Positions 30,601 through 36,600 of a stretch of DNA of 64,000 nucleotides are shown here, one piece after another. A program made the position numbers and the translations under genes. The notes below the pieces were generated by a model that searched no databases, was not told where the DNA came from, and saw nothing but the letters and a program-made list of their open reading frames with translations. The stretch comes from Siphonodentalium dalli (lineage: Eukaryota; Mollusca; Scaphopoda; Gadilida; Siphonodentaliidae): assembly GCA_032622095.1 (NCBI GenBank), contig CP136063.1, positions 89,443,980 through 89,507,979 on the forward strand, given 5' to 3'. Position 1 is the stretch's first letter. Each line of letters starts with the position of its first letter.

Positions 30601-33600
30601 ATATATTACAGTAAAACTTCTCCAAACTGGACCCTCTATAAACCGAATCCTTCTCCATACTGAATAAATAGTCTGGTTCCAAATTCACCCAAGTGAATTC
30701 AATTCACCCAAGTGAATTCTCACTATAAATTACCTCTGTAAACCTGAACCTCTCTACTCCAAACATCGGAAGCTTTTTTAGACCATAAGTGTATTTTTAC
30801 CTCTGGATTAAATGAACATGCACACAGGTAAAGTAGTTTCGTACTGTTTTGTAAGTCCACTGATTTAATTAGCAGTCTTTTGTTCAGCGAAATCTTTGAA
30901 CCAGTTTATAACAACAGGTGTCTGATTAGATATCTGAATGTTTATTTCACACATTCAGTGAACTATTCACAGATAATTACAGCACTGACAGTTTGTTTTT
31001 TACATCAGTAAGTTGGACTCTTGTTTTTACAACAACTGTCCAAACTAAACACTAATTCGCTACAAGTGCACGATGGTGCAGTATTGTCACCATAACAATT
31101 CTAATCAACCTATCACAATGAATGAGCCATCACGAAAACGACAAAGCAGAGTTGAATTTAGACCAGATAGTTGAATTTTAAAAGTTCACTAGACAATCTC
31201 AAAGCTGTAAAGTGTTCAGCATCAAGTACATCAGATCGGCAAATCAGCGATATTTTCAAAACATGCGAAACACAGTAAAGTTGATAATTTCCATATTTTC
31301 TATCTTATATATACATGTATTATGTCTTTAAATATTAAACTTTGTTTGAATTCTTATTATACCATGTTTTATCTATTTAATATTAATTTATTTTATTTTG
31401 TAGTTTATTCAATAATGTATAATTAATCAATAATGAAGTGTTTGTGTCTCATTCACACTTGGTAATGGCGGCAATATATTCCGATGGTATAGTGTGATTT
31501 CCTATTAAACAAACATCTCTCTAAACCGAACAGAAGGGATGGTCCAAAGGGTGCTCAGTTTAGAGACGTTTTACTTTAGTAACATAGCATAGCGGGCTAG
31601 CATCACTAAATTCACTTTCTGGGGACCTCATTCTGCTTAGGCCTCATCTTCTCTGGAAAGATTCTTTATTATCAAATTTCTATAGAAATTTCTTCACATA
31701 GATTATATTTCTTTTTTAGTTTAGTTTCTCTATATCCCCAAATTGCATAATCGAGGTTCCCAATGGGTGTACATCACAATATTTGGGAACTTCAATCTTA
31801 GTCTATGTCTCCCATAGTAGATGAGGCCATGCAGAATGAGTCCCCATAGTGTGAATTTGGTGATGCTAGCCCGCTATGCGGTATAGCATCACTAAATTCA
31901 CCCTCTGGGGACCTCATTCTGCAAATGACAGGCACACTAAACTCAGGCTTGATTATTTTATTGATTTCTGTATAGTTTATGTTTTGCATTTATAGTTAAA
32001 GGCCCACTTAATTTTTGAACCCCCAGATCACGTATATAAAATATATGCCACATTATATACCATTTGAAAGAGGAAGCTCCAAAACATATCATCAACTTAA
32101 TCAGTGTAATAAACTGTGAACATGTGGTTTTTGTTGAGTTACCAATGTATCTTTGTGATTAAGTTTCATCTGGTTTTGTTGTGCAAAGTGAATTATTTTC
32201 AATGGAGGGGGAATAACTCTATATTTTAAAGATAGAGTCATTCCCCTTCCATTGAAAATACGTTTTTATTTTGAATTCTGTTCCATTCTGATTTCAGCTG
32301 TTTACTATTTCTCTATGGTCATCTTCTGAGACACAGACATTTCAAATGATGATGAATTATAGTATTTTATGGCATAGATTGTTATTAAAACCGTATATCA
32401 AGGCACTATAAAAAAAATAATCAGAGACTCGAAAATTAAGTGGGCCTTTAACACATACCGTGTCGGTGGTTATAGTCTGTTTTGTATTTATAGTTAACAC
32501 ATACCGTGTTGATGGTTATAGTCTGTTTTTGTATTTATAGTTAACACATACAGTGTCAATGGTTATAGTCTATGTTTTGTATTTATAGTTAACACATACA
32601 GTGTAGGGTTGAAACGATTAATCGACTGGCTGTAGTCGACGCTGAAATGTCAGAACGTCGACTCTGAATTTTGTCGTTGACTAGTCGGAACATAGTGTAT
32701 TAGTTACATGTATAACGTTTTCAAGATCGATTCCGACATAAACGGTATTAACTGCGCGTAAGTTACGGTAAGTATAACGTTTGGTGGCACCCGGAATTGA
32801 CAGTGTTACTAGTATAGACACACACGGTGACCCGACTATTAATGGAAAGAATGAAATTGATAACACAATGTCTCACTCGCTGTTTGAGGTCAAAGACATC
32901 ACTGCGACATGATGGCAATAATTGACGCTGCTTTATCGTTTGTCGGAGACCGCTTTGATCTAGACACTGTGTATATTTCAATTGATCTCGCACCGCCGGG
33001 TTATGATGCTACGCTGCGTGAAGGTCGCTTAAGGTGACGTAATTGGTGCTACCGTATATAAATGATACTGACATTAAGAACTGGCTATCGTATTCTACAA
33101 CATAGCCTATACTATAGGGCGTATTTAGTCGGAACATTAACATTTTATAGTGACACCGCTCGGCACCGGTTTATTGGTGATCTCATGACTAAACGAAATC
33201 TCGAACTCTGATATTAAATTTAAAACCTTTATAAATGATCGTGTTTCTAATCATTATCCACCACATGTCTAATTATATAAGTGCATTCAGTGTTTCGGAT
33301 AAATATCAAGATGTTTACTGTATTATTTCCCAAATAAATTGGTGTCTATGCAGGGAAATGCGCTACGCAATAGACTGTCATTGCATCAGTCATCAGTGTA
33401 CGCCATGTATGATGAATTTTCCGTACCATGTTTGAAAGTTTTGATATCGGGTACCGACTAGTCGACGCAACGCAACATTTGGGCCTCGACTAGTCGACTT
33501 TGAAATTCACTAGTCGTTTCAACACTAATACAGTGTCGATGGTTATTGTCTGTTTTGTATTTATAGTTAACACATACCGTGTCGATGGTTATAGTCTGTT

Positions 33601-36600
33601 TTGTATTTATAGTTAACACATACCGTGTCGATGGTTATAGTCTGTTTTGTATTTATAGTTAACACATACAGTGTTGATGGTTATAGTCTGTTTTGTATTT
33701 ATAGTTAACACATACCGTGTCGATAGTTATAGTCTGTTCTTTCTGTATGAGAGGAAGATTCTCATCAATGTTGATCACTGTATCTTCATTCTGGATTGAC
33801 ACATGTGGCTGCCCCACGTTAATCTGCTTCGTGTTCTCAATCTTCTTGCCTGTAGTTAGATGGTTGATCGGAGAAATCAGTCACATTGCGAAAAAAGTTA
33901 AAGACATATTATGTACTTGTTCGGGTGCTGATAAGTTAGTGTTCAGGCACTATGCCAATTTAGCATTCTACAGACGATCCCACTTATTAACATAACGGAT
34001 AAAAACATATCCTGTTTATAACCATATTATGTTCCTGCACCAAACCATTTACACTGTATTATATGTTAATTTCTACCCTATAATAACATAAGATTTTGAT
34101 AGACCACCGGTTATAAACATAGAAATATGCAATAACATGTTAGCCACATGGGTGAAACTATGCCCACATGCCAGTTAATCAAGAGGCCATTATAGTTAAT
34201 TATGTAATTCAATCAATGCAAAGAAGGCAAACAAAGAGAAACAAGCTGTGAATGACCACATGGTCGCTTAAGATACTGATAGGCCTGTCAGCTAATTGGT
34301 TTTTATCACTTACAATCCGGTATGTGTGCTCTTTTTAATCCATTTACAATGGGACTTTAATGTACTTTGACAGGGCTTCGAATTCCGTGTCCGAAACGTT
34401 CCAATTTCGCGACATTGCATCACCGTGATCATGCTTAAAATAAGAACCTAATTTGTATGAATAGGAAACAGATGAGTATGTTTACTTAAACTCGGTGACA
34501 TAGTCCCACGCTGTCTGATTCATATCATATAAAACTCAAGCCATACTTTCTCTCATCATAACCATCCAAAATGTCTAAACGTAAACGTAACGATTTGTCA
34601 CTCGGAGTTAAATACGAAGTTGTTAAATTGCTTAAGGGGGAGACGCACGTTTTGCATAGATCACAGTAAATCCAGCCAGAAATGGCAAGTGATTTTCAAC
34701 AAAGAATTTCTCTGGATCTATCTGGTGAAAAATCTTGAATTTTACATATGATAATTTTCATTATATATAGAATCAGAGTAATTATAAAGAGACAATAACA
34801 ATAATGGATTTTAATACATTTGAGAGGTTGGAAATATTTGTTTCGTTTCTGTCCCTTTAGGTACCGAGAACTGCCAGAAAAATTTATAATTTCAAACAAC
34901 ATGTCAACAATCAAATAGCTTATTGTCTTGACTCCATGAGAGGAGGCTTCATTTATATCATAATGTTAAGTTAGCTTTTTAATTGCATATTATAGCATCA
35001 TACCCCATGTATTATAATGAAGAATAGTGCAGTCACAAATATGCCAGCCCAATGAAAACAAATGTTCAAATGTGGTGCTGTCCACTCAAGCAGGGAGCAA
35101 TCAACATAAATTAGGCCACAATGTTAAGAGATATGGTGGTCAGATTTAAATAGGTTATGAACCCATGACCCAGAACTCAACTGAGCCCAATTTTTCATAG
35201 ACCAACAAGCATGGCATGAAAATTCTCAATAATAAAAAAATATTTATGGTAGTTGTCTTTCTGAATGAAAATAATCATTTAATTTCATGAATCAAGAAAA
35301 ATTAAGTCTCCTCTCATGATCTTCAGATATGATATCATGTATATATGAAATGCACTTTCGAAAAAAATCTGTTTTACAGTAGTTCTCGGTACCTGAACAC
35401 AGTGAAATTTAAAAGATTTTTCATGCCATAAAAGTAAAGTAAATGAGATTATAATAACCAAATGTCCAATGGTTCTTATGTATGGTACCACAATAATCTC
35501 TTGTACAAAATTTCACAAAGATATTCCTGATAGATTTAGAGAAAATACATTTTGAAATACCAGGAAATTTTGGCAAAACGTGCGTCTGACCCTTAAGCAA
35601 AAGCTTTACACACAGACTGAGTTAGCGAAGAAATTTGCGTGTTCACAAATGCAGATTTCGTACAACAAACGCGACGTGTTCACAAACGCAGATCTCGTAG
35701 CAACAAACGCGACAAGATAAAAATGAAAGTGTCAATGACACTGTAGCTCAACTTAGGTAGGGGAATAATTTAATGGTCGACAGTAAATGGAGGAATAGGA
35801 AAAGTGCTAATTGAAATGTCTAAGTAAGACTAGATGTACATGTCAATATCAACATTCATAACAGGTTTCATAATGATCGGATCAGGGATGTGGTGATTAT
35901 GGTGTGCCAAAGGATTTATTGATGCAAAGAGTAAATTCTAAAATGGCCACCGGCAGCCATGTTTTTTTCCGAATTACCCCAAAATGACTTGTTCCCATCT
36001 ACAGCCTATACAAATCTCATAATGATCTGATCAAAGGTATGACCTGTAGCCTGTGCCAATGGATTTAGTCATGCAAAGAGTAAAATCCAAGATGGCTGCT
36101 GGCGGCCATGTTTTTCGGCTGAACGACCCCAAAATGACTCGTTTCCCATCTACATGTCATTGTTAACATACATGACAAATTTCATGAAGTTCCGACAAAA
36201 GCTACGACCTGTAGCCCGCACCAAAGGATTTATTCATCCCAAAATGACTCGTTCCCATCTACATGTTAATATTAACATCCATGATATATATCATGATGAT
36301 CAGACAAACAGTACGACCTGCAGTCCGTGCCAATGGATTGAATTTTGAAATCCAAGATGGCTGCCAGCGGCCAAGTTTTTTGGCCGTATGACCCCAAAAT
36401 GACTCGTTCCCATCTACATGTCAATGTCAACATTCATGACAAATTTCATAAAGGTCAGACCAAAGGTACGACCTGTAGCCAGCGCCAAAGGATTTAGTTT
36501 TGAAATCCAAAATGGCCACCAGCGGCCATGTTTTTTGGCCGAATGACCCCAAAATGACTCGTTCCCATCTACATGTCAATGTCAACATTCATGACAAATT

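What the first reader, a model, noticed from the sequence alone, without database searches (positions are those of the whole stretch)
31964..33849. A splice-donor site amplified into a tandem array
Each 46-bp unit is the last 22 nt of otoferlin-like exon 33716-33849 plus the first 24 nt of its intron, so the pre-mRNA carries the real donor followed by about nine near-identical donors (CGACACG|GTATGTG). Using the second donor would add 46 nt, stay open for one unit and shift frame. The array is old enough to have received a TTAA element and a hAT element. Either splicing strongly prefers the first site, or alternative donor use is a regulated or noisy output. A minisatellite born across an exon-intron boundary is unusual.
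Basis: seen in the sequence. Interest (0 to 1): 0.8.

Follow-up and report, generated by a model that had tools for sequence, protein, structure and literature searches.

The report
Splice-donor minisatellite in otoferlin intron
In an animal's otoferlin gene, the 46 bases that straddle the end of one exon were copied about eight times head-to-tail into the following intron, leaving a row of decoy splice sites behind the real one; this is a real but rare kind of repeat, already described as 'mirages' in amphioxus and known in one human gene.

Summary
An intact otoferlin gene crosses the window on the minus strand. Exon 33849-33716 ends at CGACACG|GTATGTG, the only donor that joins it in frame to both neighbours and to mammalian otoferlin. 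The last 22 exonic and first 24 intronic bases form a 46-bp unit present as 8 full copies (1 real + 7) plus a donor-less fragment; 'about nine' further donors is a slight overcount. A hAT element (32604-33527, 8-bp duplication) splits unit 5 and a TTAA element splits unit 8, so both landed after the array existed. The array was found nowhere else in the 2.2-Gb assembly. Four downstream donors are as good as the real one; the nearest competitor, unit 2, is weakened by G-to-T at -1. Any downstream donor gives a premature stop, so only donor 1 makes full-length protein. Likeliest reading: a neutral minisatellite born by tandem duplication across an exon end, with the first donor normally used and slips probably removed by nonsense-mediated decay. 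That is a known kind: amphioxus 'mirages', and functionally human IFI6. Use of the decoys cannot be tested without RNA. A new member of a known kind, of moderate interest as a natural donor-competition series.

The parts
33716..33849 (-). otoferlin exon (134 nt), ...[45 protein letters not shown]; linker N-terminal to the DWWSKYFAS motif
   Evidence: In-frame join with both neighbours; the joined protein matches mammalian otoferlin 9qe2_A 1041-1170, E 7.8e-20
33692..33737 (-). unit 1: the real exon end plus donor (CGACACG|GTATGTG, first intron base 33715)
33646..33691 (-). unit 2: donor weakened, CAACACT|GTATGTG
33600..33645 (-). unit 3: donor as strong as the real one
33554..33599 (-). unit 4: donor as strong as the real one; identical to unit 3
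33528..33553 (-). unit 5, 5' part, ends in the hAT target duplication (donor cut after GTAT)
32604..33527 (.). non-autonomous hAT-like element, 924 bp, target duplication ATACAGTG on both sides, inserted into unit 5
   Evidence: about 3% from the consensus of 9 other copies
32574..32603 (-). unit 5, 3' part, with second copy of the target duplication (ACT|GTATGTG)
32527..32573 (-). unit 6 (47 nt), donor ACT|GTATGTG
32481..32526 (-). unit 7, donor ACG|GTATGTG
32452..32480 (-). unit 8, 5' part, donor ACG|GTATGTG
31996..32451 (.). TTAA-flanked short inverted-repeat element (piggyBac-like target site) inserted in unit 8
   Evidence: terminal repeats TTAAAGGCCCACTTAATTTT at both ends; many genomic copies
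31969..31999 (-). rest of unit 8 and partial ninth unit without a donor; array end
   Evidence: boundaries read from the alignment
30151..30285 (-). next otoferlin exon, [45 protein letters not shown], phase 0
43778..43952 (-). preceding otoferlin exon (C2D region), ends CCAG|GTAGCC at phase 1; start is the first matched codon

Best explanation
A minisatellite was born by tandem duplication of 46 bp that straddle the 3' end of an otoferlin exon, and it expanded into the intron. The exon, its reading frame and its 5'-most donor were kept (shown by sequence). The other donors are passive copies inside a 3.4-kb intron. Splicing most likely uses the first donor because exon definition pairs the upstream acceptor with it, because the nearest competitor is weakened at -1, and because any transcript spliced at a later donor carries a premature stop and is probably removed by nonsense-mediated decay (these splicing steps are inferred). 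The array then stayed in place long enough to receive two DNA transposons.
For: Gene: colinear otoferlin exons, most 50-82% identical to a recalled human otoferlin used only as a search lead, on the minus strand from 89474 kb down to 89357 kb without a break. Upstream C2D exons match mammalian otoferlin 985-1041 and 1040-1090, and FerB lies further upstream. The joined three-exon protein matches otoferlin 1041-1170, E 7.8e-20. Donor: phase 1 in and phase 0 out fit the 33715 donor; no other GT inside the exon reaches PWM 5. Array: 8 units in register after both inserts are set aside, with an exact 8-bp target duplication and TTAA ends. The array is found only here in the genome. Consequence: donor 2 gives a stop in the next exon; donors 3 onward give a stop inside the extension. 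Precedent: amphioxus mirages do not disturb normal splicing in RT-PCR data (PMC3087553; PMC3902484).
Against: Four downstream donors (units 3, 4, 7, 8) score the same as the real one (PWM 7.55, U1 duplex -7.4 kcal/mol). Between competing donors, SRSF1 and enhancers lying between them favour the intron-proximal one (PMC5585400), so silence of the decoys is not guaranteed. No RNA, no second individual and no related species could be examined.
Confidence: 0.78

Rival explanations
1. The decoy donors are used at a measurable, perhaps regulated, rate: the array works as a dial on otoferlin output, because every downstream donor yields a premature stop and decay or a protein truncated before C2E.
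For: Four downstream donors equal the real one in predicted strength, and all downstream choices give premature stops. In human IFI6, downstream repeat units of a minisatellite are used as donors (PMC4526556, citing Turri 1995).
Against: Unit 2 is weakened at -1; nothing conserved marks the array as selected. Variation is concentrated in the exon-derived half, partly at CpG. Amphioxus mirages are reported not to disturb splicing (PMC3087553, PMC3902484).
Confidence: 0.12
2. The array was first a purely intronic minisatellite and the exon later grew into it by recruiting the donor of its first unit.
For: The real exon end is itself a unit, differing from the consensus only by one synonymous C/T change.
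Against: No other donor of PWM 5 or more exists inside the exon. The mammalian alignment runs on across the junction with similar residues (KVD opposite TID). The donor fits phase 0 of the next exon.
Confidence: 0.06
3. The array is an assembly artefact or lies in a dead copy of the gene.
For: Only one assembly was available.
Against: Two different transposons with intact target duplications sit in two different units, units differ from each other, and all otoferlin exons found are open and colinear. The second ferlin gene of the genome (C2) is dysferlin/myoferlin-like, so this is the only otoferlin detected.
Confidence: 0.03

Closest known systems
'Mirage' minisatellites of amphioxus (Adh3, troponin C, globins BflGb6 and BflGb9, PGBD5)
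   Same: Tandem repeats whose unit spans an exon-intron boundary, with copies of splice signals lying in the intron next to an intact exon (PMC3087553, PMC3902484). Unit length 46 bp lies within the range given for Adh3 (10-72 bp).
   Different: Length and somatic instability, known for Adh3, could not be tested.
Human IFI6 (6-16) minisatellite
   Same: A minisatellite at an exon end that supplies several splice donors.
   Different: In IFI6 downstream repeats are used as donors and give three mRNAs (PMC4526556 citing Turri 1995). Here use is unknown, and the 46-nt unit shifts the frame and brings stops.
Intron creation by tandem duplication of splice-signal segments (Rogers-type model; internal tandem repeats in human segmental duplications, PMC2812944)
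   Same: Tandem duplication that includes a splice signal.
   Different: No new intron is created; the intron already existed and gained copies of its own donor.

Membership tests
mirage minisatellite (exon-intron boundary tandem repeat) | repeat unit spans an exon-intron boundary of a live gene | tested here: met
   22 exonic + 24 intronic nt; exon joins in frame to otoferlin neighbours
mirage minisatellite (exon-intron boundary tandem repeat) | copies carry splice signals | tested here: met
   four downstream ACG|GTATGTG and three ACT|GTATGTG donors
mirage minisatellite (exon-intron boundary tandem repeat) | regular splicing is not disturbed | not testable with these tools
   needs RNA from the organism
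mirage minisatellite (exon-intron boundary tandem repeat) | copy-number instability between alleles or cells | not testable with these tools
   one assembled haplotype only
multiple-donor minisatellite (IFI6 type) | downstream repeat units used as splice donors in mRNA | not testable with these tools
   donor strength alone allows it
otoferlin | sequence closer to otoferlin than to dysferlin/myoferlin, with linker and C-terminal exons in order | tested here: met
   E 7.8e-20 otoferlin against 3e-9 dysferlin; colinear exons and otoferlin-type C-terminus

The most novel reading that the evidence does not exclude
The array is a working decoy-donor bank: a share of otoferlin pre-mRNA is spliced at units 3, 4, 7 or 8, giving stop-bearing transcripts, so that repeat number sets full-length otoferlin output and varies between individuals.
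Probability: 0.1. Interest if true: 0.6.

Novelty: new member of a known kind. Interest (0 to 1): 0.38.

Why it matters
It is a natural series of near-identical 5' splice sites in one intron of a conserved gene in which only the first gives a full-length product. RNA from this animal would directly measure how the spliceosome chooses among equal donors. It is also a boundary repeat of the amphioxus 'mirage' type in a genome that, at 2.2 Gb, is unlikely to be amphioxus (the species was not identified), which suggests such repeats can arise wherever introns are rich in minisatellites.

Tried and rejected
Secondary structure hiding the decoys: one to three units fold no better than shuffles (z 0.05 to 0.73). 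Dispersed repeat family: the array is found only at this locus. Other boundary repeats in the gene: none of the other boundaries of 14 otoferlin exons is repeated within 4 kb (best 27 of 46, chance level, against 45 of 46 here), and no other tandem array overlaps one of those exons. Selection on the intronic half: 7 of 22 exon-derived against 1 of 24 intron-derived positions vary (p 0.02), but three of the seven are CpG positions, so this is not taken as selection. Pfam scans of most window frames found no ferlin domain; comparison with solved otoferlin did. The original papers on IFI6 and amphioxus Adh were not held.

Full report
The window is part of a 2.23-Gb animal assembly (G000, contig C3, 89443980-89507979). 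A FerB exon lies upstream of it and Ferlin_C exons downstream, all on the minus strand. With a recalled human otoferlin sequence used only as a search lead, colinear exons were placed from the window down to the C-terminus at 89357260; most are 50-82% identical and all are open. Inside the window, two upstream exons match solved mammalian otoferlin at 985-1041 and 1040-1090. Exon 43952-43778 ends at phase 1 (CCAG|GTAGCC), exon 33849-33716 begins with the matching two bases and ends at phase 0, and exon 30285-30151 begins at phase 0. The join reads without a stop and matches otoferlin 1041-1170 with E 7.8e-20, against 3e-9 for dysferlin. So the exon and its donor at 33715 are well supported, though no RNA was available. 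The exon alone is too variable to be recognised.

The array. On the minus strand the unit is ACAGACTATAACCATCGACACG|GTATGTGTTAACTATAAATACAAA (22 exonic + 24 intronic bases). Setting aside the hAT-like element (32604-33527, 924 bp, target duplication ATACAGTG on both sides) and the TTAA element (ends at 31996 and 32451, matching terminal repeats) leaves 8 complete units in a row and a donor-less part of a ninth. Units 3 and 4 are identical; mean pairwise difference is 5.4%. The array is found only here in the genome. The hAT family gave 1215 first-look candidates and the TTAA family 5470; the two copies here lie about 3% and 5.7% from consensuses of nine relatives each. Both insertions therefore look old, and the array is older still; no absolute date is claimed.

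Donors. With an approximate human donor matrix and U1 duplex energy, the real donor scores 7.55 and -7.4 kcal/mol, as do units 3, 4, 7 and 8. Units 2, 5 (3' copy) and 6 have T at -1 and score 4.23 and -3.5. The 5' copy in unit 5 is broken by the hAT end. Eleven of the twelve other internal exon donors of this gene, placed semi-automatically, score 5.3 to 9.8, so the real donor is ordinary. Donor 2 adds 46 nt, shifts the frame and meets a stop in the next exon. Every later donor meets a stop in the second added unit, even where the added length is a multiple of three. Only donor 1 can give full-length otoferlin.

How it likely arose and works. Array births across an exon end should be uncommon but not startling. 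In 173.9 kb of this gene there are 14 minisatellites of four or more copies spanning 9.0 kb. If placed at random, about 1.7 exon boundaries would fall inside such arrays and about 0.1 would lie within a founding unit; one case was found. The partial ninth unit (AACATAAACTATA) resembles the exon start of the unit (AACAGACTATA). It may be the intronic half of a short direct repeat that seeded the first duplication, or a truncated unit; the two cannot be told apart here. No unusual RNA structure was found. The best-supported account is passive: the first donor is used, later donors are tolerated, and errors are cleared by decay. That account is inferred, because competing donors are context dependent (PMC5585400).

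Comparison with what is known. Tandem repeats across exon-intron boundaries, with copied splice signals and undisturbed splicing, are described as 'mirages' in amphioxus (PMC3087553, PMC3902484), and a human minisatellite with several working donors is known in IFI6 (Turri et al. 1995, cited in PMC4526556). This is a new member of that kind, not a new kind.

Noticed in passing
38189-39778 and 40915-42504: A tandem segmental duplication (offset 2726 bp, 99.3% identical over 1590 bp) that includes a 164-bp repeat array.
   Followed up: partly
7434-8347, 16817-17995, 52749-52927: Other minisatellites in otoferlin introns (16 bp x 57, 34 bp x 35, 21 bp x 8.5); the gene is rich in them, and only the 46-bp array touches a known exon.
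   Followed up: partly
27703-28145 and 45673-46286: Two arrays of the same 122-bp unit at distant places, probably a dispersed satellite-bearing element.
   Followed up: no
6308: A second copy of the TTAA element end (TTAAAGGCCCACTTAATTTTCGAG) in the window; another copy lies about 0.4 kb beyond the window end (C3:89508417).
   Followed up: no
33692-33737 against other units: The real exon copy differs from the array consensus by one synonymous change (ACT against ACC, both Thr).
   Followed up: yes
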